Shown here: positions 25,758-41,223 of the stretch, one piece after another | Position numbering within the stretch: the stretch's first letter is position 1 | Layout: each line of letters opens with the position of its first letter | Assembly: GCF_000017565.1 (NCBI RefSeq) | Contig: NC_009719.1 | Coordinates: 3,517,001 to 3,581,000 of the forward strand | Direction of reading: 5' to 3' | Length of the DNA: 64,000 nucleotides | DNA from: Parvibaculum lavamentivorans DS-1 | GTDB lineage: Bacteria > Pseudomonadota > Alphaproteobacteria > Parvibaculales > Parvibaculaceae | Program-made: the position numbers and the translations under genes | Notes under the pieces: generated by a model | Told to the model about the DNA's origin: nothing | The model's database searches: none | The model's input: the letters and a program-made list of their open reading frames with translations, nothing else

Positions 25758-26723
25758 ATGTATTTAGCAGGAGCCGCCTTGAGCAACGAACCCTTCACGA
25801 TCAGTGCAGTAGTCCCTGTCTATGGCTGCCGGGATTGCCTGGAGGAACTTTGTGTCCAGCTCGAGCGCAACTTGTCTATCCTCACCGACCAGTACGAAAT
25901 CATCCTTGTTGACGATAGAAGTCCGGATAACTGGTGGCAGATTCTGCCAGAATTACAGAAGCGCCATGCTTCACTCAAAGCCGTTCGCCTCAGCCGCAAC
26001 TACGGACAGCAAGTAGCCATAACGGCGGGTCTTGCCGCAGCGAAGGGTGACTACACGGTCGTGATGGATTGCGATCTTCAGGATCCGCCGGATCTCATTC
26101 CCACTCTATTCGCAAAGCTTCGGGAAGGTCATGACCTCGTACTCGCCCGCCGGGTATCCCGAAGCCACTCGCCGTTCAGACAACTTGCTGCACGTATATT
26201 CGTTGCAATTTCGCGCATGCTCACCAACGAGAAGATCGACGGCAGCTACGGCTCCTTTTCTCTTCTGTCGAGAAAGGTCGTCGACAGCTTTCTGCTATTT
26301 GAAGAAAGGGAGCGCTACTATCTGAGCATCATCCGCTGCCTCGGCTTCAATGTAGGAACAGTAGACTTCCTTCACCGGAGCCGGCATTCAGGCAGCAGCA
26401 GCTACGGCCTGCGACACCTCTTCCGAATCGGAATCAACGGTATCCTCCTCCAGGCGACCGTCGCGCTTCACTGGATCGTCGGATTCGGTTTCTTCATCGC
26501 AATCAGCGGCACTGCTACAGCGGCATATCTTGTGTGGCGACAGCTGTTCCAAGCAAGCATACCCGGATGGACAAGCCTCATCGTGCTTATGCTTTTGTGC
26601 ACAGGCGTAATCCTTATTAGTTTGGGATTCGTAGGATTATATATCGGCAAGATATTCGAGCAGACGCGAGGCCGACCGCTCTACGTCGTCGATTCCGTCG
26701 AAGAAAGGCGGCTTTCATGGTGA
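25758..26723 (+). CDS. GT2 glycosyltransferase, polyprenyl-phosphate sugar synthase type (GtrB/DPM1-like)
   Basis: This 321-residue protein has an N-terminal GT-A domain (ISAVVPVYGCRDCLEELCVQ, EIILVDDRSPD and MDCDLQDPPDLIPTL, where the DxD-type acidic cluster binds nucleotide-sugar and metal). Two C-terminal helices follow (VGFGFFIAISGTATAAYLVW and IVLMLLCTGVILISLGFVGL), ending GKIFEQTRGRPLYVV. This layout is typical of enzymes that transfer a sugar to undecaprenyl phosphate. The start could be ATG 25758 or TTG 25779. It overlaps the next methyltransferase gene by 7 bp. Confidence 0.9.
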   Translation: MYLAGAALSNEPFTISAVVPVYGCRDCLEELCVQLERNLSILTDQYEIILVDDRSPDNWWQILPELQKRHASLKAVRLSRNYGQQVAITAGLAAAKGDYTVVMDCDLQDPPDLIPTLFAKLREGHDLVLARRVSRSHSPFRQLAARIFVAISRMLTNEKIDGSYGSFSLLSRKVVDSFLLFEERERYYLSIIRCLGFNVGTVDFLHRSRHSGSSSYGLRHLFRIGINGILLQATVALHWIVGFGFFIAISGTATAAYLVWRQLFQASIPGWTSLIVLMLLCTGVILISLGFVGLYIGKIFEQTRGRPLYVVDSVEERRLSW

Positions 26724-27364
26724 AAGAAAGCGGCACCGACTCTCACACCACCATTCTTGCGGAAGTTGCGGACTACTATTCCGGCAAACTCGCGGAACAT
26801 GGAGAAACGCCCCAGGGGGTGGACTGGAACGGCGAGGCCGGTCAGGTGTTGAGGTTCGAACAACTTAGCAAGGTGGTCGCTTCCGGCCCCGCTTTTTCTG
26901 TCAATGATCTCGGTGCTGGCTACGGCGCACTTTTTTCCTATCTCGATACTCGCTACGCCGATGTCAGCTATTTCGGGTACGACGTTTCCGAAAGTATGGT
27001 GATGGCTGCGCGCAGGCAGTTTGGCCATGCCCGAAATGCCACCTTCTCGGTTTCCTCGACACCTCAAACATCTGCCGACTATGGCATGGCGAGTGGCATC
27101 TTCAATGTCAGGCTCGGTCGCGCCGATGCAGAATGGCGCAGCTATATAGAACAGACGCTCGATCAGCTTCACAGGACCAGCAGACTGGGATTTTCCTTCA
27201 ACTGCCTCACCTCATACTCGGATAAGGACAAGATGCGTCCCCACCTCTACTACGCGGATCCGTGCGAGCTTTTCGATATCTGCAAGAAAAAATACTCCCG
27301 GCAAGTGGCTCTCTTGCATGATTACGGACTCTACGAATTCACAATTCTGGTGAGGAAACTCTAA
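26717..27364 (+). CDS. SAM-dependent methyltransferase (class I)
   Basis: This 215-residue protein has the class I methyltransferase motif I as SVNDLGAGYGALFSYLDTRY, an acidic strand YFGYDVSESMVMAARRQF, and GMASGIFNVRL at the motif IV position. The last third (MRPHLYYADPCELFDICKKK) is typical of small methyltransferases in polysaccharide clusters. The target is unknown. It overlaps the GT2 gene by 7 bp and the downstream acetyltransferase gene by 1 bp, so the three are translationally coupled. Confidence 0.75.
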   Translation: MVKESGTDSHTTILAEVADYYSGKLAEHGETPQGVDWNGEAGQVLRFEQLSKVVASGPAFSVNDLGAGYGALFSYLDTRYADVSYFGYDVSESMVMAARRQFGHARNATFSVSSTPQTSADYGMASGIFNVRLGRADAEWRSYIEQTLDQLHRTSRLGFSFNCLTSYSDKDKMRPHLYYADPCELFDICKKKYSRQVALLHDYGLYEFTILVRKL

Positions 27365-28029
27365 TGACAAAACCGCTGGTCATTTTCGGCGCCGGCGACA
27401 TTGCCCAACTGGCGCACTACTATTTTTCGACAGATTCAGCACATGAAGTTGTCGCTTTCAGCGTGGATGCCGCCCATATCGATCAGGACAATTTTTGCGG
27501 CCTCCCCGTGGTCCCGTTTGAAGAGGTAACTGACGCCTTCCCGCCCCGGGAGCACGATTTTTTTGTCGCCCTGAGCTATTCCAAGCTCAACCAGCTACGA
27601 AAAGACAAATATTTGGCCGCAAAAGCCGCTGGATACAATATTGCAAGCTACATAAGTTCCCGCGCATCGGTGCTTAACCAAGGCAAGATCGGCGAAAATT
27701 GCTTCATCCTGGAAGACAACACCATCCAGCCCTTTGTTACCATCGGCAACAATGTGACCCTGTGGAGTGGAAATCACATTGGCCATCATTCCGTGATCTC
27801 CGATCACTGCTTTATCGCTTCCCATGTTGTGGTTTCCGGGGGTGTCGAAATCGGGGAACGCAGCTTTATTGGCGTGAACGCCACGCTTCGCGATCACATA
27901 AAAATCGGTGAGTGCTGTGTAATCGGCGCAGGCGCCATCATTCTCGCCGATGCAGAAGCGGAAGGCGTTTATGTCGGCCAAGGCACGGAGCGCGCGAAGA
28001 TTCCCAGCAGCAGGCTTCGAAAGATATGA
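27364..28029 (+). CDS. PglD/NeuD-like sugar O- or N-acyltransferase
   Basis: This 221-residue protein has a Rossmann-like N-terminal half (PLVIFGAGDIAQLAHYYF) that binds nucleotide sugar in this family. The C-terminal left-handed beta-helix of hexapeptide repeats reads IGNNVTLWSGNHIGHHSVIS, DHCFIASHVVVSGGVEIG and FIGVNATLRDHIKIG. The His pair in GHHSVISDH corresponds to the catalytic base region of PglD. PglD and VioB-type enzymes N-acetylate 4-amino-4,6-dideoxy sugars, so with WecE in this island dTDP-Fuc4N is an attractive substrate. That assignment is inference. Confidence 0.8.
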   Translation: MTKPLVIFGAGDIAQLAHYYFSTDSAHEVVAFSVDAAHIDQDNFCGLPVVPFEEVTDAFPPREHDFFVALSYSKLNQLRKDKYLAAKAAGYNIASYISSRASVLNQGKIGENCFILEDNTIQPFVTIGNNVTLWSGNHIGHHSVISDHCFIASHVVVSGGVEIGERSFIGVNATLRDHIKIGECCVIGAGAIILADAEAEGVYVGQGTERAKIPSSRLRKI

Positions 28030-28136
28030 AACGGCCGATATATTTCTGAAGCAGAGCGGGCGCGTTAGAGATTAATCCGACCGCAAATATATTAAACTCA
28101 CGTCGCTGATCGTCGAACAACACACCCCCATTCGGC

Positions 28137-28835
28137 CTACCGCCGGCCGGCTGCTTTCATATATTGGCCGGCAGAACTACCACAATTGAATAGCAGATCG
28201 ACGATTGAAACGGTGTGCACGAAATCACCCCAAAGCTGAGGATACTCGGGATAACCGCTGTAATCGAACCAGGTGACGCCGATACCTTTGCGGCGAAAAA
28301 CCTCCTCGTCGAGATACTCCCTCGCTGCAGGACCGGAGATATATTCAGAGGCACCGGCTTGTTCGCAGAGACTGGCAAGTCGTTCGGTTTGCCCCTGGAC
28401 CAGTTCATAGTCCGAGGAGTTTGTGATTGTTGTGCAAACTCCAAGGTAGCGACAGATGGCTTCAAGCAGATCGCGGTTGAGGATGGAAAGATGCGAATAG
28501 CGCTTCTCCAGATAGAAAGGAGATAACCATTCCGTCACCTCGGCAAAAAAGGGCGCTCGCTTGTAGTTGGATGAGATGCTCTTCCAGTGCCCTTCAGGCC
28601 AGTCCACTCCATCGATTTCCGTCTCGCAAATCTTCTGATGGTACTTTCCCTTGACCTTGACAGGAACCGTAAGCCACATCAGCCCTTGCGGAGTTTTGAT
28701 CTGGTTTCGGTTCCGCCAGTCGCGCCGCGTGTATTGCATGTCGTCGTAGAGAATGAACTCGTCCACCGACGCAATGAGATCGAAATAGCCCTTCCAAGGG
28801 ATGTAGTTCGACTGGAGTATCGCAACTTTCTTCAT
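28137..28835 (-). CDS. WbqC family protein
   Basis: This 232-residue protein begins [20 protein letters not shown] and continues [20 protein letters not shown] and [20 protein letters not shown], the signature of the WbqC-like family found in O-antigen and other surface-sugar clusters. The C-terminal part has [20 protein letters not shown] and [12 protein letters not shown]. The biochemical role is not firmly known. Its ATG overlaps the stop of the upstream GT-C-like gene (ATGA), so the two are co-expressed. Confidence 0.88.
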
Positions 28836-30416: not shown

Positions 30417-31511
30417 TTATAACTTGAACCGATGCCTAATCTCGATCCTGTCGAGGCGTCTCCGAAGATTTTCTGCGTATTCCTTTTTGAGAATCGGTTC
30501 GCATACAAGAAGAGTTTTAATTCCCCATACACGACGGGCATGGTTGAGCTTCTCTCCCATCAGCCCTTTCAAAGATCGTTCTATTTTTCGACCGAGATAG
30601 GATTTCTCTGGGTCGTTCTTCTGAATGCTGAGTCTGCGCCTCTTGCTCGTTTCTGAGAAAATTCTGCAATATTGGTCGAATTCATTTCTGACTTCGTCCA
30701 GCGTTCGAAGGAATATCTCCTCAGAGCCTGTCTTCCGGGCCAGCCCTTGAAAGGCATAATGGCTTTTCTCGACCCATCTCAGCAACGGCGTCGGAACATC
30801 TGCCTCGTTTAACGTTGCTGTGTTGTTTTTCAGCTCCTTGCTGACAAATTCATTCAGATCCTTTTCTGCGTCCTCCGTTAGTCGAGAAAACGGAATGGTC
30901 AGTTCAGCACCTATCTGCCGCACGACGGAACGCCAATCCGCAAGCAGGGCGTCGTAGTAGACGAAACTTCTATTCAGTCCGCGTGACGAAAACTCCGCAT
31001 CAAGAGTGTGCCGAAGCCACAGAAGCAACCCCTCATTGAGGCTCATCCCGTCTCGACGGCGAAGTGAGATCGCAACCTCCATCGGCTCGCGCAAAGACAG
31101 AATAACGGAGGTTTGAACTCCCAGGCTTTTCAAGGTCTGCAGCCAAAGAGGTAGAAAGCGGCACATTCTTGGATCTTTGACAGCAAATAGTAGGGCGCTT
31201 CCAAACTCATCCTCAACTATGCGGGCCAATTTAATCGAGAAAGGTTCAGCGGCTGCTCCTGAAGACCAAGTGCTGTCAAACTGGCTCCAGTCATTCCACT
31301 CGCTTCCAGCCGCTGCCAGCAGGTTTTCATGAAAATGGTAGAGTTTGGCAGATTCCCAGTAACCGCGGCGATTCCATTCGTTGCCCCTTATGAGCGTGTT
31401 TGGCGCTGTAACGCCTAACGCGGAGAGGACCCCCGTCAACGCGGACGTACCGCTGCGGTGCATCCCCAAGACCAGTATTGCCCGCCGTGCAGCTTGTCCG
31501 TTCTGATCCAT
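30417..31511 (-). CDS. Sulfotransferase family protein
   Basis: From ATG 31511 this is 364 residues; GGGGAG lies about eight bases upstream, although the frame is open to 31697. The N-terminal AILVLGMHRSGTSALTGVLS matches the PAPS 5'-phosphosulfate-binding loop of the sulfotransferase superfamily. VKDPRMCRFLPLWLQTLKS and SLREPMEVAISLRRRDG match the 3'-phosphate-binding region. It probably sulfates a surface glycan. It heads a minus-strand unit with the GT-C-like and WbqC genes, divergent from the HTTM fusion gene. Confidence 0.82.
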   Translation of the reverse strand: MDQNGQAARRAILVLGMHRSGTSALTGVLSALGVTAPNTLIRGNEWNRRGYWESAKLYHFHENLLAAAGSEWNDWSQFDSTWSSGAAAEPFSIKLARIVEDEFGSALLFAVKDPRMCRFLPLWLQTLKSLGVQTSVILSLREPMEVAISLRRRDGMSLNEGLLLWLRHTLDAEFSSRGLNRSFVYYDALLADWRSVVRQIGAELTIPFSRLTEDAEKDLNEFVSKELKNNTATLNEADVPTPLLRWVEKSHYAFQGLARKTGSEEIFLRTLDEVRNEFDQYCRIFSETSKRRRLSIQKNDPEKSYLGRKIERSLKGLMGEKLNHARRVWGIKTLLVCEPILKKEYAENLRRRLDRIEIRHRFKL

Positions 31512-31731
31512 TAAAACGCGCTCCCCATCTAGCATTATCGGTGTCCTGTGAGCCCCATGCCGGCCTGCCCGTTCCGGAATTTGATCCTTCCAATAGACCA
31601 AAAGAGGATACTGACTTCGACGATGGCGGTTAACCCGTCGCGGCAATCCTGCCATATCCGCTGTATAGAAATGGCTCACAGCTTCCATTTTGTCCAAATT
31701 TCAGTAAACCTCGAAGCAGAGATGAGAAAGA

Positions 31732-34284
31732 ATGGTGACAACGGAAGGGTTCCTAATGATACCGGGCTTCACCGATATTGGACCACAAACGGAGTTCCTG
31801 ATTTTCTGGTCTCTCCTCCTCCTGTCCTTTGCGATTTCCGCGAGGTCAAGGTGGCTATCGGGGAGGATGGGTCGCGCCATGGCGACGCTAGCGGGCTGGG
31901 TCAGAAAAAGGCACGCACTTCCCGAACACGAAATTGACCACGATCTCCGAAAACTAGACATCGCCCGGATCGCGATAGGCGCTTTCGCCACCGGACGATA
32001 CGGCCTCATCCTTTCCCTCGCGCTGTCGAATGGCTCCTACGACATCGTGCTTGTTGCCGGAGTTGCGACTGGTTTGTCGCTACTGGTGATGCTGGGTGTG
32101 GCAACACCGGTGGCACTTCTCTTGTTAATGAGCTCGGCCAACATTCTGATCGACAACGCGCTCGGGGCGTCGACGCTCGGTACCATGGTATTGTCCATCG
32201 CGCTTCTGCTTTTTCTCTTAGCGCCCGCCGGCCGCACACTTTCCATCGACAGTCTCCTCCACAAAGGCAACGGCACCTTCGCATGGGGAGTCGATGCAAT
32301 GTATCGCTTCTTCGGTTCGGTTTCCGCCGACCGAATTCTGATTGCCAAGCTCGCTGCCCTGCTCGCCTATTATTGTCTTTGCCTCTATTCGATCAGCTGG
32401 CACATTCATGATGAGGCGTGGACCTCAGGCCTTGTCATTAACTGGGTCCTCCTGTCACCGGCCTCCAATCCACATTTTGTCGATCTCGCATGGGACGCTT
32501 ATCAAGCGGCACCATGGTTTTTCGTGAATTTCTGCCGCCTCGCGATTGTCGGCATGGCATTCTGGTATGTGCTGCTCCTGCCAGGCCTCTTTCTCGGGGC
32601 CATAGTTCGCTATTTCATCATCTTGTGGGGCATCGCCTTCTTCCTGATCAGCACCTTCGTCCTGCCGCTCAGCTATCTGGGCTGGTACGAGTTGATCTTC
32701 TGGTTCGCGGTCTTTGCGACAGGACCAGTCTTCGGAAGTAATGAGACCAAGAAGCTTTCCGTACTGTTCGACGACCGTTGCAATCTGTGCGACCGGACAG
32801 TGAAGACGCTTTCTTGGTTCGACATCTTTGGTCGGCTTGTCTTTATGCCCATTCACCGAAACATGGTGACGGCGGAAAAGTTCGGTGTTTCGTTGGAGGA
32901 AGGGCTTACCGATCTCGTCGGGATTGAGGAAGCGACTGGTAAAAGATATGATGGCTACCGGCTCTACGAAACCGTCGCTGCACGAGTTTTTCTTCTCTGG
33001 CCTGCGTGGCCTGTCCTCTGGCTCGGTCGTAAGCTATGGATCGGTCCTGCCGTTTATCGTTTCATCGCCGACCGCCGCACTCGGCTTTTTGGTGTCTGCG
33101 AGTTTTCTACAATTCCCGACAAGTTTTCTCGTTTTGGACATTCCAAGAATATTGATCCGCAGTCTGGTGCGCCGGCATATTCAGCGGCCATTCACGCCGT
33201 GCTGGTCACCCTTGTCGTCCTTTCGACGGCTTTCTTGCTGCGTCTGCCAACATTCACTACCGCAGCCGATGAAATTGCTCCCGGCCGGTGGGCGGCATCA
33301 GCCTTCGGCGCGGCCCCTCTCGGTTTCGGGATTGGAAAAATCAATGTCTTCAACGAAAGCGACCTCGCGCTTTTTACACTACGGTTTTCGGCGACGATGC
33401 AGCCGTCGCTGGATATGCCGGAGGGCAATGTTTTGACCAAGCCTCTGTCGTCCCCTCATCTCTTCAACATGAGCGATCGGCAGCGGTATTTCATCATCAA
33501 ACACGCCCGGCGAATGTCACGTATGAACCTGGGCTGCGACATGGACTTCTGGCGCGATGTATCACCCATGTACGTGGAATCTCTTTTGACTGCGGTCCAG
33601 GTTGTTCCCTACGCGGACTTGGTCGTAACAATCGGCAAGGTATCATGGCCATCCGCGAAAGACCTGGAGAGCTATACGGCCTTGTCGCCCGATGTCTATG
33701 ACCTCTGCCACGGGCGCATTGATATCGAGACCGGCAATCTAATAAGCCTTGAGTTCGATCAGAATGGAGTAGATCGCGCGCTGCGTCGCATGGAATTGCC
33801 TGAGTTTCTCAAATCGGACTCAGTTCTTGTGGCTCTCAACTATCCATGTCTTGCAGACGCCGGATGGCTGAACACGTTGATCGACACCGACGGGGAGTTA
33901 TTAAGGCAGTCCGAATTTGTGGCTTCATCAAGGGAGCTGCTGGTTTCGCGCTATGGCGAGTTTCAGATTAACTGCCTATTCAGAACCATTGCCATCATGC
34001 AGGCCCAGCCGGACCTCGATTTATATATACAAAGGAACGCCTCCCCTTCGCTCTGCCAAGCGGGAGTCGCGCTTGTGGAAGCGCTCGCCGAAGCGGCGAC
34101 TCCCGATAAAAATTTGTACGAAAGCGTCGGAGCACTTCGTACCTCCGCCCTTGAGGCACAGGAACGCGGAGAAACGAATCTTTGCATCAGGTCTGCCGCT
34201 TCCGCAAGGCAACTCTATTTCGAACATATACTCAAGCCAGAGAGCTACAACGTCTGGCAGCAGCGTACCGCGAATAGCCGGTAG
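31732..34284 (+). CDS. HTTM (VKGC-like) membrane domain - DCC/DUF393 thiol-redox domain fusion protein
   Basis: This 850-residue protein has three parts. Residues about 70-335 are multi-helical and resemble the HTTM domain of vitamin K-dependent carboxylase-like proteins (KLDIARIAIGAFATGRYGLI, APAGRTLSIDSLL, YSISWHIHDEAWTSGLVINW). Residues about 342-460 are a DCC/DUF393 thioredoxin-like domain with KLSVLFDDRCNLCDRTV, where C350 and C353 form CxxC. After another helix (about 485-505) comes a C-terminal domain of about 340 residues that I do not recognise, probably extracytoplasmic. ATG 31732 is used; ATG 31756 also has a good GGAAGGG site. It ends 31 bp before the PhyH-type gene. Confidence 0.75.
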   Translation: MVTTEGFLMIPGFTDIGPQTEFLIFWSLLLLSFAISARSRWLSGRMGRAMATLAGWVRKRHALPEHEIDHDLRKLDIARIAIGAFATGRYGLILSLALSNGSYDIVLVAGVATGLSLLVMLGVATPVALLLLMSSANILIDNALGASTLGTMVLSIALLLFLLAPAGRTLSIDSLLHKGNGTFAWGVDAMYRFFGSVSADRILIAKLAALLAYYCLCLYSISWHIHDEAWTSGLVINWVLLSPASNPHFVDLAWDAYQAAPWFFVNFCRLAIVGMAFWYVLLLPGLFLGAIVRYFIILWGIAFFLISTFVLPLSYLGWYELIFWFAVFATGPVFGSNETKKLSVLFDDRCNLCDRTVKTLSWFDIFGRLVFMPIHRNMVTAEKFGVSLEEGLTDLVGIEEATGKRYDGYRLYETVAARVFLLWPAWPVLWLGRKLWIGPAVYRFIADRRTRLFGVCEFSTIPDKFSRFGHSKNIDPQSGAPAYSAAIHAVLVTLVVLSTAFLLRLPTFTTAADEIAPGRWAASAFGAAPLGFGIGKINVFNESDLALFTLRFSATMQPSLDMPEGNVLTKPLSSPHLFNMSDRQRYFIIKHARRMSRMNLGCDMDFWRDVSPMYVESLLTAVQVVPYADLVVTIGKVSWPSAKDLESYTALSPDVYDLCHGRIDIETGNLISLEFDQNGVDRALRRMELPEFLKSDSVLVALNYPCLADAGWLNTLIDTDGELLRQSEFVASSRELLVSRYGEFQINCLFRTIAIMQAQPDLDLYIQRNASPSLCQAGVALVEALAEAATPDKNLYESVGALRTSALEAQERGETNLCIRSAASARQLYFEHILKPESYNVWQQRTANSR

Positions 34285-34315: not shown

Positions 34316-35140
34316 ATGTCAGAGACATCACACTACGGTGTAAAAGAGCAGACACTTTCCGTGACGGCCATCGACCGGGCGATCGAGCAGCTCAGACTTC
34401 TTGGCTATGCCGTTCTAGACGGATCCTATAGCAGGGCAGAACTCACCCAACTACAGGAGGCGTTTTGCGCCGCGAGAAGGAAGATGGAGGAGCACTTCGG
34501 TGGCAAAGACTCACTTGAGAAAATAGACGAACATAACACGATCCGGATACCGATGATGTATGAGCGTGTCTTTCTCGATCTCGCGCTCAATCAAGCCATT
34601 ATCGAGCTGTGCCGTCGCATGATCGGAGATTACTTTATTCTCAATCAGCAGAATGGCATATCGAATCCAGGCAATTCGACGCGCTATAATCAAGGAGCGT
34701 TTCACCGCGATCTGCCTTACCAACACTTTGTTTCGGATCGGCCGCTGGCGATTAATGCGTTGTTTTGCCTCGATGACTTCACGACGGAAAATGGCGCGAC
34801 CTACGTCCTGCCTGGAAGCCACAAACAGTCCGCCTACCCTTCAGATGCGACGGTAGACGCGCTCAAGGTCCAAATTCCCGCTCCTGCCGGCAGTTTTATC
34901 ATTCTCGACTGCATGCTTTATCATTCAGGTGGGGTCAACAGGACCGATCGCGAAAGACGTGCTGTCAATCACGTCTATTCGATCCCTATGCTCAAACAGC
35001 AGATAGACCTGCCTGCGGCATTGGGTGACACATTCAGCGACGATCCCGGCGTCCGTCAGCTTCTCGGTTACGACTCAACTGTCCCGCTGGATGTTGCCGC
35101 GTACTATAGGTCGCGTACGAAAAAGAAAGAGTTCAGCTAG
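34316..35140 (+). CDS. Phytanoyl-CoA dioxygenase (PhyH) family Fe(II)/2-oxoglutarate oxygenase
   Basis: From ATG 34316 (GAAAGGGAAC upstream) this is 274 residues. The facial triad is visible: His and Asp in NQGAFHRDLPYQHF and the distal His in CMLYHSGGVNR, followed by the 2-oxoglutarate-binding Arg in RERRAVNHVYS. PhyH-like enzymes hydroxylate varied small molecules or sugars; the substrate here is unknown. It directly follows the HTTM-DCC fusion gene, and its last 8 bp overlap the convergent beta-propeller gene. Confidence 0.87.
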   Translation: MSETSHYGVKEQTLSVTAIDRAIEQLRLLGYAVLDGSYSRAELTQLQEAFCAARRKMEEHFGGKDSLEKIDEHNTIRIPMMYERVFLDLALNQAIIELCRRMIGDYFILNQQNGISNPGNSTRYNQGAFHRDLPYQHFVSDRPLAINALFCLDDFTTENGATYVLPGSHKQSAYPSDATVDALKVQIPAPAGSFIILDCMLYHSGGVNRTDRERRAVNHVYSIPMLKQQIDLPAALGDTFSDDPGVRQLLGYDSTVPLDVAAYYRSRTKKKEFS

Positions 35141-36074
35141 TTTCCAGGACGGCTAGACCGAACCCGGTCCGACCATATCCGTTGCCGTTATATAGCATGT
35201 AGCGACGGCCGTGGTGATCAAAGACACATGGATAAGTCTGTTCACGATCATCCCAATCATCCGGACTGCCCGTCCACGCAATTCGTTCATCTTGACGCTG
35301 CCACGTCGCACCTTCGTCATCTGATATTGCAAAACCCAATTCATACCCCGGCCGCCGCCGCGCATACCACATAGACCAAATTCCATCGGCCTCCGCGACG
35401 ACGCTAGGTCTGGACACCGCAAATTCTTGCGGGTCCTCAGCACCTTTCAACGGAATAGCCACCTTCCCGATAGCGGACCAGGAAAATCCATCGGAGGATT
35501 TCGCTTCCTTGATTACATGCTTCATCTCAAGGCCCACCTCTCCCCATGCGAGATGGCTGCCGTACCACATTCGATACTCCGAGCCACTACGCATGACCCA
35601 TGGATAGCCGAGCGTAAAAGGATCGACGGCGGAACGACCGATGACCGGGACAATTTCCCGGCGGCGAAAAACTGCGTCACCCGTCCGGGGAGCGGTGGCG
35701 ATTCCGATGAAGTTTGAAAAAGGTACCGACACCCCGACCGACCAGCCGAGATAGTAAGCAATTAGTTCGTTGTCCTTCTCGATCACACAACCAACCGAAA
35801 CTCCATCAGCGTCGAAAGCCCCTCGCATACCCGGTCCGAGGAGAGGCCCTTTCGGGGCTGACTCTCTCTGGAAACCTTCACCGTCGAGCGAGAGTGTGAC
35901 GCTGGCTAGCGACGACCTGCTCGTTGCATCCCGGACTGAGAAGTACACATCGATCAGGCCGTCACTTCTCACCAATGCCGTCGGATAGCTTGCGTGGCTT
36001 TGCCACCATGGCGCTGAAGCCTCTGGAGCAATCACACGCCCCAACCTGCGCCAGACCTGCTTCTTTTTGTCCAT
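35133..36074 (-). CDS. Five-bladed beta-propeller (glycosidase-like) protein
   Basis: From ATG 36074 this is 313 residues without a signal peptide. Repeated strand motifs resemble the GH43/GH32-type propeller: WWQSHASYPTALVRSDGLID, RMWYGSHLAWGEVGLEMKHV, SRPSVVAEADGIWSMWYARR, and DWDDREQTYPCVFDHHGRRY followed by MLYNGNGYG. Acidic residues near blades could be catalytic, but I cannot confirm a glycosidase triad. Such proteins occur in polysaccharide clusters as sugar-binding or processing factors. The gene is single and minus-strand between PhyH and a methyltransferase. Confidence 0.6.
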   Translation of the reverse strand: MDKKKQVWRRLGRVIAPEASAPWWQSHASYPTALVRSDGLIDVYFSVRDATSRSSLASVTLSLDGEGFQRESAPKGPLLGPGMRGAFDADGVSVGCVIEKDNELIAYYLGWSVGVSVPFSNFIGIATAPRTGDAVFRRREIVPVIGRSAVDPFTLGYPWVMRSGSEYRMWYGSHLAWGEVGLEMKHVIKEAKSSDGFSWSAIGKVAIPLKGAEDPQEFAVSRPSVVAEADGIWSMWYARRRPGYELGFAISDDEGATWQRQDERIAWTGSPDDWDDREQTYPCVFDHHGRRYMLYNGNGYGRTGFGLAVLETS

Positions 36075-36257
36075 CGTCGTTTCTTTGTATGGGACCGCCG
36101 CCTGGGCGCTATTGAACGGGTACGCGCGCCGAATAACCGTCGATTCACGACGATAGCCTTCTTGGCCCTTGTCTGGAACTATGTCACACAACAAAGTTGC
36201 GAACAGCGCAGAATTACGGCGACAGCTTTTCGAGCCAGATAGCGGGGTTTTCGACGG

Positions 36258-38396: not shown

Positions 38397-39533
38397 TCAA
38401 ACCGGCAATCGCTCCACGGATTGAATAACCCTGCTGACATCATCTGGCGACAACTGCAGATGCAGTGGCAAACGGACCAGCCGGGCCGAAATTTCGTCGG
38501 TCACGGTCATCTCCCCACAACTCCGTCCAAACCTGAGGCCTGCGGGTGCAGAATGCAATGGGACATAATGAATGACTGCATTGATCCCGTCCCGCACGCC
38601 TAACTGGTCGAGCCAGATCTCGCGGTGCTTGGCCGTGGGAGCCAGGATGTAGAAAATATGACCGTTATGCGCGCAATGGTCTGGCGGATTGGGAATCGAC
38701 AGCTTGCCCGTTTCCTGCAGAGGTCTGAAGGCGTCGTGATAGGCCTGCCAGAGTGCAAGCCTTTGATCTGTTGCCTGGCGGCCCACCTCAAGCTGAGCAT
38801 ACAGGAATGCGCTCGTAATCTCGCTTGGCAAAAACGACGATCCGACATCCACCCAATTATACTTGTTGACGATGCCACGCTTGTATTTGACGCGATTTGT
38901 TCCCTTTTCCCACAGTATCTCTCCGCGATCGATGAATTTAGAGTCGTTAATCATCAATGCTCCGCCTTCACCCGAAACTATGTTTTTTGTTTCGTGAAAA
39001 CTGAAGGCGCTGAGATGGCCGAACGATCCGAGTGGCTTGCCACGATAATCTGCATAGAGACCTTGCGCGGCGTCCTCTATGACAATCAGGTCGTATCGCC
39101 TGGCGATCTCCAGAATGGCGTCCATCTCACATCCAACGCCAGCGTAATGAACCACCATGATCGCTTTGGTTCGGGAGGTGATGGCCTGCTCTATCAAGGT
39201 CTCGTCGATATTCAGCGTATCGCGTCTAATATCTACAAAAACCGGAACGGCTCCACGCAGCACCACAGCATTGGCAGTACTGGTGAAGGTGTAGGACGGC
39301 ATGATGACTTCGTCGCCGACATGTAGATCCGCGAGCAGGGCGGACATTTCCAGAGCATCGGTACAAGATGGAGTGAGGAAACATGCCGAACTGCCGATGT
39401 GATCAACCAGATAGGAACTGCACAGTGAGGTATATTTTCCGTTGCCGGAAATATGCTGGCTTCTGATGGCGTCCTCAATGTACTCCATCTCGCGCCCGAG
39501 CACCGAAGCGACGTTAAATGGAACTACGGCCAT
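38397..39533 (-). CDS. wecE: dTDP-4-amino-4,6-dideoxygalactose transaminase
   Basis: This is a PLP enzyme of the DegT/DnrJ family that aminates dTDP-4-keto-6-deoxyglucose to dTDP-Fuc4N. From ATG 39533 it is 378 residues. It tracks WecE/RffA closely: MAVVPFNVASVLGREMEYIE, CFLTPSCTDALEMSALLADL, HVGDEVIMPSYTFTSTANAV, VHYAGVGCEMDAI, and the PLP lysine K183 in FSFHETKN. The C-terminal VIHYVPLHSAPAGLRFG is also family-like. It would draw on RfbA/RfbB made from the plus-strand unit about 15 kb away. Confidence 0.9.
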   Translation of the reverse strand: MAVVPFNVASVLGREMEYIEDAIRSQHISGNGKYTSLCSSYLVDHIGSSACFLTPSCTDALEMSALLADLHVGDEVIMPSYTFTSTANAVVLRGAVPVFVDIRRDTLNIDETLIEQAITSRTKAIMVVHYAGVGCEMDAILEIARRYDLIVIEDAAQGLYADYRGKPLGSFGHLSAFSFHETKNIVSGEGGALMINDSKFIDRGEILWEKGTNRVKYKRGIVNKYNWVDVGSSFLPSEITSAFLYAQLEVGRQATDQRLALWQAYHDAFRPLQETGKLSIPNPPDHCAHNGHIFYILAPTAKHREIWLDQLGVRDGINAVIHYVPLHSAPAGLRFGRSCGEMTVTDEISARLVRLPLHLQLSPDDVSRVIQSVERLPV

Positions 39534-39641
39534 CGCGCTCCGTCCCGGCACCACGCACCGATTGTCTGTGTCTTCCTCATGCACTTCCCCAAATGCATCC
39601 CCCGGCGGATGCGACCGACATTGCGCGATTCGTATCATATT

Positions 39642-40256
39642 TCAGGAGCGTATTTGCATGATCCAGTAAGTATACGGAATCCATGCCCGTTCTTTGAGCC
39701 ACCCAGTCACGTCCCCAAAATGGCGCCGCGCCAGCTCTGTGTATCCCTCCGGACTACGGATGCTCTTTCCCCGGTCCTGCCCAACGATGAACCGCGCCAG
39801 CGGATTCTGGCCGGGCACGAAGGTACCGTCCACCGTGATGATACGCCCCCCCGGTTTCAGCCCGGAAGCGAAGGCATCAAATAATTCGTCGACTTCCGGG
39901 TCATCCAAATGGTGAAGGAGGCCCGTCGCCAAGATAAGATCGAAGGTACCAAATTTCGCGAGCGCTGCCTTGTCCAGAAGACTGGCCTGAAATTGCCCTC
40001 TCTCTCCCCACCTGTTGCGGGCCTTCTCGATATAGGGCTCGCTTATGTCAAATCCGAGATATTGTACATCCGGCATTACCGATAGAATGTCAGCCGTGCC
40101 GCAGCCGACATCCAGCACTCGTTCACCTGGCCGGGCCTTGATGAATTCGCGTTGCATCCATACCCGATTCCGGCGCGCGCCCATCAAGGTCTGCGCAAAA
40201 TCATAAACCGTCGGGTTTGAAAGGATGGCAAGAATGCCTGACGTATCCTGGGCCAT
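39642..40256 (-). CDS. SAM-dependent methyltransferase (class I)
   Basis: This 204-residue protein has a typical motif I (RVLDVGCGTADILSVM), the acidic residue of motif II in YLGFDISEPYIEKARNRW and motif IV/V in FDLILATGLLHHLDDPEVDE. The middle GLKPGGRIITVDGTFVPGQN is standard for small-molecule methyltransferases. The target is unknown. It lies between wecE and another methyltransferase gene in the same minus-strand unit, with 10 bp to the upstream gene. Confidence 0.82.
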   Translation of the reverse strand: MAQDTSGILAILSNPTVYDFAQTLMGARRNRVWMQREFIKARPGERVLDVGCGTADILSVMPDVQYLGFDISEPYIEKARNRWGERGQFQASLLDKAALAKFGTFDLILATGLLHHLDDPEVDELFDAFASGLKPGGRIITVDGTFVPGQNPLARFIVGQDRGKSIRSPEGYTELARRHFGDVTGWLKERAWIPYTYWIMQIRS

Positions 40257-40266
40257 TAAGTTTCTT

Positions 40267-41223
40267 TCAAAGTTTCCTAGCGACCACCACGCGGCTCCCG
40301 CCGGCCGGCCAACGAATTCCCCTCTCCGTCATTGCCACCTCGGCTGTAGTGATGATCGCAAGCAACGAATTTATCAAAGGTGAAATTTCGAATTCCTGGC
40401 GCGCGATCTCGCGCGGGTCGCGGGTGTCCGGCGCGCCGCGAGAGAGGACACGACTCAGTGCCATAACAGGAAGGAGGCCCACGGTATAACTTGTTGAAAA
40501 GACGACGCTGAAACCGGCCCGTTCGAGCTTTTCTTCCATTTCACCGCGGCGATAACGGCGTTCGTGATGTGCCACCTCGTCCGAGGCGCTCCATAACGAT
40601 GGATGCTGGGGCACGGTAGCCAGAAAAGTGCCTCCTCTCACCAACGACTTCGCTATCTCCGCCATTACATGTTCGTCTTCCGCTATATGTTCTAGCACAT
40701 CGAAGGCGCCTGCTAGGTCGAAGCTATCTTTGAAGGGAATCCGCCGTGCATCGAGCTGCATCAGTTCGACATTGCCCGGCAGACGCTGCCGAGCAAGATG
40801 CAATCCGCGAGGATGGATTTCAGTACCCAGTATGCGGTCCCAACGGCGCGATAAGGCAAGCGCAGCAATGACATTGCCCGATCCGCAGCCGATTTCAAGA
40901 AAGCGTCGCGCGTCCGGCGCGTATTTTCTTGCAAGCGCAACGATAAGGCGACGGCGGGCGGCGAACCAGAAATGACCGAGCTCGGCGAGGGAAAGATAAT
41001 CGAAATCGGCGGGATCAAATCCAGAGATCGTATTCGCAAGGTCCGGAGCAGCTAGCGCAATACCATCATCAAATGTCAATGCATGGCTGCAGGCATCACA
41101 GGTCCATCCGGGAGGCCAGCAGAGTGCGGATGCATCAAGGGGCTCGGCTGCGCCGCACCCGGGACACAAGCGGAAACCATGCGGCCATGCACCGGTAGAT
41201 GGACTTTCTAAAATGGCCGTCAT
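40267..41223 (-). CDS. SAM-dependent methyltransferase with N-terminal Cys motif
   Basis: This 318-residue protein starts with a possible zinc ribbon (LCPGCGAAEPL and WTCDACSHAL). The class I methyltransferase domain has RFLEIGCGSGNVIAALALS, motif II ILGTEIHPRGLHLARQRLPG and AGAFDVLEHIAEDEHVM. The C-terminal third contains a hydrophobic stretch (YTVGLLPVMALSRVL) as in several methyltransferases of glycan clusters. The substrate is unknown. It follows the EamA-like gene by 56 bp. Confidence 0.82.
   Translation of the reverse strand: MTAILESPSTGAWPHGFRLCPGCGAAEPLDASALCWPPGWTCDACSHALTFDDGIALAAPDLANTISGFDPADFDYLSLAELGHFWFAARRRLIVALARKYAPDARRFLEIGCGSGNVIAALALSRRWDRILGTEIHPRGLHLARQRLPGNVELMQLDARRIPFKDSFDLAGAFDVLEHIAEDEHVMAEIAKSLVRGGTFLATVPQHPSLWSASDEVAHHERRYRRGEMEEKLERAGFSVVFSTSYTVGLLPVMALSRVLSRGAPDTRDPREIARQEFEISPLINSLLAIITTAEVAMTERGIRWPAGGSRVVVARKL

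What the first reader, a model, noticed from the sequence alone, without database searches (positions are those of the whole stretch)
31732..34284. HTTM - DCC/DUF393 - unknown domain fusion inside a glycan island
A vitamin K carboxylase-like membrane domain is joined to a CxxC thiol-redox domain and a C-terminal region of about 340 residues that I do not recognise. Eukaryotic VKGC depends on vitamin K redox cycling, so a built-in thiol-redox partner is suggestive. The next gene is a PhyH oxygenase. Together they could be a membrane redox system that modifies a surface sugar, lipid or peptide.
Basis: partly seen in the sequence, partly recalled or inferred. Interest (0 to 1): 0.7.

Follow-up and report, generated by a model that had tools for sequence, protein, structure and literature searches.

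The report
Carboxylase-fold membrane protein with redox insert
A bacterial surface-sugar gene island carries a membrane protein built on the fold of the human vitamin-K-dependent carboxylase, but its invariant catalytic lysine is replaced by an invariant histidine and a redox domain is inserted on the cytoplasmic side, so it is probably a new kind of surface-sugar modifying enzyme rather than a vitamin K carboxylase.

Summary
The gene is real. It encodes 850 aa from the listed ATG, or more likely 842 aa from an ATG at 31756. The DCC domain is certain. The HTTM call is right in substance but invisible to Pfam: profile-profile alignment to 35 true HTTM proteins gives E=2e-8 (controls 0.3-0.8), and the first thirteen Foldseek PDB hits of the AF2 model are all human GGCX. 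Two facts change the reading. (1) The lysine invariant in all 35 HTTM proteins (taken as GGCX K218) is an invariant histidine, H224, in all 19 aligned family members, so membership in the carboxylases fails. (2) Charge bias puts H224 and the C-terminal domain in the periplasm and the DCC domain in the cytoplasmic TM8-TM9 loop, so the CxxC is not on the catalytic face. The protein belongs to a rare family (2 of 386 alphaproteobacterial genomes), usually inside a portable dTDP-amino-sugar cassette (WbqC, GT2, methyltransferase, NeuD, propeller protein, WecE, sometimes PhyH) that also exists without it, so it is an accessory. Residues 507-850 match no known fold. Best reading: a periplasm-facing, possibly quinone-linked, tailoring enzyme for a lipid-linked or O-antigen sugar. 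The chemistry is unproven.

The parts
31756..34284 (+).
   Evidence: ORF; start by Shine-Dalgarno GGAAGGG and by homologue start
31909..32721 (+). HTTM-like membrane domain, residues 60-330 (TM2-TM8 of the model)
   Evidence: hhalign to 35 HTTM proteins E 2.2e-8; Foldseek PDB ranks 1-13 all GGCX
32401..32403 (+). codon of H224, invariant His at the position of the HTTM-invariant Lys
32761..33093 (+). DCC1-like (DUF393) domain, residues 344-454; CxxC C350/C353 at 32779-32790; placed in the cytoplasmic TM8-TM9 loop
   Evidence: Pfam PF04134 E 2.5e-17; invariant Cys; charge bias
33184..33237 (+). TM9, residues 485-502
   Evidence: AF2 helix 485-502 and hydrophobicity peak
33250..34281 (+). C-terminal periplasmic domain, residues 507-850; 507-660 shared by the whole family, 660-850 only in long forms (tandemly duplicated in Bosea L008)
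   Evidence: alignment A3; no fold match
34316..35140 (+). PhyH-family Fe/2OG oxygenase, 31 nt downstream
   Evidence: Pfam PF05721 E 7e-22; next door also in Rhizobium L004
22720..25682 (+). rfbC, rfbB, rfbA: dTDP-4-keto-6-deoxyhexose supply
   Evidence: Pfam
25758..26723 (+). GT2 with C-terminal TM helices (probably a polyprenyl-phosphate sugar transferase)
   Evidence: Pfam PF00535; TM helices read from the sequence, inference
26717..27364 (+). cassette methyltransferase, 50-65% identical across most loci
27364..28029 (+). NeuD/PglB/VioB-type sugar acyltransferase of the cassette
   Evidence: NCBIfam TIGR03570 above cut-off
28137..28835 (-). WbqC-like protein of the cassette
   Evidence: Pfam PF08889 E 1e-84
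35133..36194 (-). propeller-like cassette protein (weak GINT1_N/DUF4185 similarity, below cut-offs)
38397..39638 (-). WecE-type aminotransferase (dTDP-4-amino-4,6-dideoxygalactose)
   Evidence: NCBIfam NF008687 559.6 bits, cut-off 375
39642..41223 (-). two further cassette methyltransferases

Best explanation
An inner-membrane tailoring enzyme of the HTTM/DoxX superfamily, optional to a portable 4-amino-4,6-dideoxysugar O-antigen-type cassette. Shown by computation: a GGCX-like membrane fold; an invariant His (H224) replacing the HTTM-invariant Lys; a DCC thioredoxin-type domain inserted between TM8 and TM9; charge-based topology that puts DCC in the cytoplasm and the His face plus the C-terminal domain in the periplasm; conserved location in glycan cassettes. 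Inferred: the pocket behind H224 holds a quinol or another isoprenoid such as an undecaprenyl-phosphate sugar; H224 acts as acid/base on the periplasmic side; the substrate is a lipid-linked or newly polymerised sugar carrying the cassette's amino-deoxyhexose; the cytoplasmic CxxC takes or supplies electrons from the cytosolic thiol pool, or acts as a redox switch; the C-terminal domain binds the acceptor, as the propeptide-binding domain does in GGCX; PhyH, where present, hydroxylates the same sugar or its acyl group in the cytoplasm.
For: HTTM relationship: hhalign E 2.2e-8 over 231 columns with negative controls at 0.32-0.84; Foldseek PDB ranks 1-13 all GGCX. H224 invariant 19/19 against Lys 35/35 in HTTM, aligned in two profile alignments with overlapping HTTM sets. 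Charge-bias topology in 19 family members, agreeing with GGCX's nine TMs, luminal Cap after K217/K218 and luminal C-terminal domain (PMC12589487). C350, C353, C456 invariant. DoxX similarity of the first four TMs, E 4e-10; DoxX/DoxD relatives are quinone-linked (own knowledge). Cassette linkage: of 24 loci, 14 have the NeuD homologue, 12 the 26717 methyltransferase, 11 WbqC and 6 PhyH within the fetched flanks, in Alpha- and Gammaproteobacteria, Bacteroidia and one MAG labelled Thermoflexus. One locus is in Rhizobium johnstonii 3841 (L016) and by position probably lies in its RL0813-RL0826 LPS cluster, genes of which are needed for root colonisation (PMC11103875).
Against: No substrate, quinone or product is known. 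The cassette also occurs without this protein (G134, G175, G367 and a partial case in G094), so the function is optional. Seven of 24 loci show no cassette marker other than at most a GT2 or methyltransferase within the fetched flank. The C-terminal domain shows no similarity to the HTTM/VKGC C-terminus. Topology rests on charge bias, not experiment. GGCX structural matches have E 0.009-0.07 on a medium-confidence model (pLDDT 78).
Confidence: 0.42

Rival explanations
1. A vitamin K/menaquinone-dependent carboxylase-type enzyme whose DCC domain recycles the quinone, as VKOR does for GGCX.
For: GGCX fold; quinone-linked relatives; CxxC domain in the same chain.
Against: The catalytic Lys of the family is His in all 19 family members and Lys in all 35 HTTM proteins. 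The HTTM FH motif reads FF (alignment). CxxC faces the cytoplasm, away from the active face. No GGCX-like peptide-binding domain by sequence. No candidate Glu-rich peptide substrate was noticed in the ORFs of 22-44 kb (not systematically searched).
Confidence: 0.06
2. A transmembrane thiol relay (DsbD or ScsB-like in logic): cytosolic DCC passes electrons through the membrane domain to the periplasm, where they reduce cysteines of the C-terminal domain or of a partner.
For: Cytosolic CxxC, membrane domain and periplasmic domain with Cys602/Cys659 in one chain; C217 in TM5 in 17 of 19.
Against: C217, C602 and C659 are absent in the two Bacteroidota members while CxxC stays, so there is no family-wide cysteine path across the membrane; the glycan cassette context is not explained.
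Confidence: 0.15
3. Not an enzyme on the sugar but an assembly, flipping or maturation factor for the glycan machinery, comparable to LMF1 for lipases, with DCC as a redox sensor.
For: Optional presence beside otherwise complete cassettes; LMF1 relatives of HTTM are maturation factors (own knowledge).
Against: No profile similarity to LMF1 (E 0.27), which keeps the Lys; strict conservation of H224, W230, G233, E320 and CxxC looks catalytic.
Confidence: 0.22
4. A cargo or lysogenic-conversion gene that alters the O-antigen to block phage, with selection by phage rather than by the cassette's own chemistry.
For: One homologue sits beside phage tail-fibre genes in an IMG/VR contig (L027); low-GC island and patchy distribution.
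Against: Only one such locus; most loci are chromosomal or plasmid glycan clusters. This concerns why it is kept, not what it does, and is compatible with the best explanation.
Confidence: 0.1

Closest known systems
GGCX, vitamin K-dependent gamma-carboxylase (HTTM, PF05090; PDB 9wf3, 9l21, 9bux and others)
   Same: Membrane fold; TM5 ending in the catalytic position followed by a long Cap loop; nine TMs with a large C-terminal domain on the same (luminal/periplasmic) face.
   Different: Lys replaced by an invariant His; FH motif reads FF; DCC inserted in the TM8-TM9 loop; unrelated C-terminal domain by sequence; below Pfam detection.
DCC1-like/DUF393 thiol-disulfide oxidoreductase (PF04134)
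   Same: Clear member domain: DxxCxxC and the late conserved Cys (C456).
   Different: Usually a stand-alone protein of about 130-200 aa; here an insertion in a cytoplasmic membrane-protein loop.
DoxX family
   Same: First four TMs align at E 4e-10.
   Different: DoxX is a 140-aa four-TM protein; here there are further TMs, DCC and a periplasmic domain.
LMF1 lipase maturation factor (PF06762)
   Same: Multi-TM protein with a C-terminal domain, itself weakly similar to HTTM.
   Different: No profile match to this family; LMF1 keeps the Lys.
RefSeq DUF393 domain-containing protein WP_145924249.1 (Rhizobium sp. N731 plasmid)
   Same: Full-length homologue, 51.5% identity, PhyH next door.
   Different: Annotated only by its DCC domain; no function described in what I could search.

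Membership tests
HTTM / vitamin K-dependent carboxylase | Pfam PF05090 profile match | tested here: not met
   No match for the window protein or the 18 aligned homologues at E<=1; 15 genomes searched whole, none matched at the family gene
HTTM / vitamin K-dependent carboxylase | HTTM membrane fold | tested here: met
   hhalign E 2.2e-8, 231 columns, controls 0.32-0.84; Foldseek ranks 1-13 GGCX
HTTM / vitamin K-dependent carboxylase | Active-site Lys (GGCX K218) at the end of TM5 | tested here: not met
   His in 19/19; Lys in 35/35 HTTM proteins
HTTM / vitamin K-dependent carboxylase | Propeptide-binding C-terminal domain | tested here: not met
   No similarity, E 0.25-0.27; no fold match
HTTM / vitamin K-dependent carboxylase | Carboxylation driven by quinol epoxidation | not testable with these tools
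   Needs biochemistry
DCC1-like (DUF393) | Profile match and DxxCxxC motif | tested here: met
   PF04134 E 2.5e-17, 19/19 family members; C350/C353 invariant
DCC1-like (DUF393) | Thiol-disulfide oxidoreductase activity | not testable with these tools
   Needs biochemistry
LMF1 | PF06762 profile / profile-profile similarity | tested here: not met
   hhalign E 0.27 N-term, 0.51 C-term
DoxX/HTTM superfamily | DoxX-type four-TM core | tested here: met
   hhalign E 4e-10 over 119 columns; the DoxX set had been picked by this family's own profile, so the value is optimistic
PhyH Fe/2OG oxygenase (neighbour) | PF05721 match with HxD...H | tested here: met
   E 6.8e-22; HRD and distal H read from the sequence

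The most novel reading that the evidence does not exclude
A new enzyme class on the vitamin K carboxylase fold: His instead of Lys as the base, a periplasmic glycan or polyprenyl-linked sugar instead of a peptide as substrate, and electrons supplied across the membrane from a cytosolic thioredoxin-type domain built into the TM8-TM9 loop.
Probability: 0.17. Interest if true: 0.8.

Novelty: new variant of a known kind. Interest (0 to 1): 0.5.

Why it matters
GGCX is the only HTTM enzyme whose chemistry is understood in detail (own knowledge). A natural family with the same fold, an invariant Lys-to-His swap, a redox domain on the opposite membrane face and a glycan instead of a peptide context would show what else the fold can do. 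One homologue is in Rhizobium johnstonii 3841, where deletion followed by LPS analysis can be done now. The work also exposes a family that current profiles label only DUF393.

Tried and rejected
Pfam, NCBIfam and PHROGs on the whole protein: only DCC. Sequence profile against PDB: nothing credible (none; citrate synthase at E 0.017, ignored as chance). LMF1 membership: rejected. C-terminal domain as a VKGC C-terminus or any known fold: no support. Standard HTTM proteins fused to DCC: none of 35 HTTM proteins carries DxxCxxC; two long DCC frames in Bacteroidota were mechanical ORFs, not fusions. Paralogue in the same genome: none. Literature for HTTM with DCC or WbqC: nothing useful. The exact RL locus number of the 3841 homologue could not be confirmed. 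Viral structure library: one hit of note, a giant-virus protein, not followed.

Full report
Observation. The ORF at 31732-34284 is real. The start is probably 31756 (residue 9): GGAAGGG precedes it and the Rhizobium homologue starts close to there. Pfam finds DCC1-like at residues 344-454 with E 2.5e-17 and nothing else. PhyH follows 31 nt downstream. The surroundings are a dTDP-amino-sugar glycan island, rfbC-rfbB-rfbA, WecE, NeuD-type acyltransferase, WbqC, GT2s and methyltransferases, with GC 53-58% between about 20 and 44 kb against 62-65% outside.

Is the N-terminus HTTM? Pfam says no, also for all homologues. I collected homologues (alignment A3) and separate true HTTM proteins. Profile-profile alignment gave E 3e-7, then 2.2e-8 over 231 columns with 35 HTTM proteins. 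Unrelated polytopic proteins and reversed profiles gave 0.32-0.84. AF2 (pLDDT 78, pTM 0.74) followed by Foldseek against PDB returned human GGCX structures at ranks 1-13, probability 0.98-1.00, E 0.009-0.07. The first four TMs also align to DoxX, E 4e-10 (the DoxX set had been picked by this family's profile, so the value is optimistic), and HTTM itself aligns to DoxX at 2.5e-6, so the proper frame is an HTTM/DoxX superfamily. LMF1 does not match.

The active site. In all 35 HTTM proteins the residue near the end of TM5 is Lys, which I take as GGCX K218 (the pair K217/K218 and the Cap loop from D220 are described in PMC12589487). Both profile alignments place H224 of this family opposite it. 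H224 is invariant in 19/19 family members, as are W230, G233, F303 and E320. A second HTTM motif, FH in TM7, reads FF. So this is an HTTM-fold family with a consistently different active site.

Topology. The AF2 helices and the K+R/D+E counts of each loop in 19 family members agree on one topology: basic loop 39-67 and loop 166-199 in the cytoplasm, the acidic Cap 224-260 in the periplasm, R293 in the cytoplasm, the DCC loop 331-483 (including RRTR) in the cytoplasm, TM9 at 485-502, and the C-terminal domain in the periplasm. This matches GGCX, where the C-terminal domain is luminal. DCC is thus an insertion between TM8 and TM9 on the face opposite the HTTM active site. C350, C353 and C456 are invariant. 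C217 (TM5), C602 and C659 are missing in the two Bacteroidota members, so a cysteine relay across the membrane is not conserved.

C-terminal region. Residues 507-660 are shared by the whole family. Residues 660-850 occur only in long forms (window, Rhizobium L004, Bosea L007 and L008, a gammaproteobacterial MAG L010), and this module is repeated in tandem in Bosea L008 and as an apparently frameshifted second copy in L007. A separate AF2 model (pLDDT 70) finds no credible PDB match.

Distribution and context. Strong matches occur in 2 of 386 alphaproteobacterial genomes, and only in the centre genome G557 itself among 197 Bacteroidota; all are fused to DCC. Across 24 homologous loci the fetched flanks contain the NeuD homologue in 14, the 26717-type methyltransferase in 12, WbqC in 11 and PhyH in 6 (PhyH). 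Some Rhizobium and Neorhizobium loci are near-copies, and L002 and L015 encode the same protein, so these are not independent counts. Gene order GT2 - methyltransferase - HTTM/DCC - NeuD - propeller protein is kept in the alphaproteobacterial MAG L015 and in Pseudomonas alcaligenes L021, and nearly so in Cellvibrio L014. The cassette also occurs without the protein in G134, G367 and G175 and partly in G094, so it is an accessory step. The R. johnstonii 3841 locus (L016, 863.5-885.0 kb of the chromosome) probably lies in the LPS cluster RL0813-RL0826, several genes of which are needed for root colonisation (PMC11103875). This assignment is by approximate position only and the protein itself is not named there.

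Mechanism. Shown by computation: fold, Lys-to-His swap, topology by charge bias, conserved CxxC, glycan-cassette linkage, accessory nature. Inferred: an inner-membrane tailoring enzyme acting from the periplasmic face on a lipid-linked or nascent sugar, H224 as acid/base, possibly with a quinol, the cytosolic CxxC as electron entry or redox switch, the C-terminal domain for acceptor binding. I put this at 0.42. A vitamin K carboxylase in the strict sense is unlikely (0.06).

Novelty. The parts are known kinds; the combination with the Lys-to-His swap and the cytosolic DCC insertion was not found described in the papers searched, which is limited evidence. I rate it a new variant of a known kind.

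Noticed in passing
L027:2227-4344 (IMG/VR contig IMGVR_UViG_2896564473_000001): A homologue of the HTTM-DCC protein lies next to phage tail-fibre genes (PHROGs tail families), as a lysogenic-conversion gene acting on O-antigen might.
   Followed up: partly
L008:10013-13009 and L007:9992-13072 (Bosea): The cysteine-containing C-terminal module of the long forms is tandemly duplicated in L008; in L007 the second copy appears frameshifted.
   Followed up: partly
window 26717-28835 and cassette homologues: WbqC, the 215-aa methyltransferase and the NeuD-like acyltransferase are mostly 50-75% identical across Alpha- and Gammaproteobacteria, Bacteroidia and a Thermoflexus-labelled MAG, which suggests a widely transferred cassette of unknown product.
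   Followed up: partly
BFVD A0A5K0UBG6 (Yasminevirus), hit: A giant-virus protein annotated as a desaturase (822 aa) matches part of the AF2 model with Foldseek probability 1.00 (E 0.028, 298 columns), so it may contain an HTTM-like domain.
   Followed up: no
window 30417-31697 (-): Divergent sulfotransferase-like gene (Pfam scores just below cut-off) between the glycosyltransferases and the HTTM-DCC gene; no homologue in the other fetched loci.
   Followed up: no
window 20000-44000: Low-GC glycan island (53-58% against 62-65%) without a tRNA gene in the window.
   Followed up: partly
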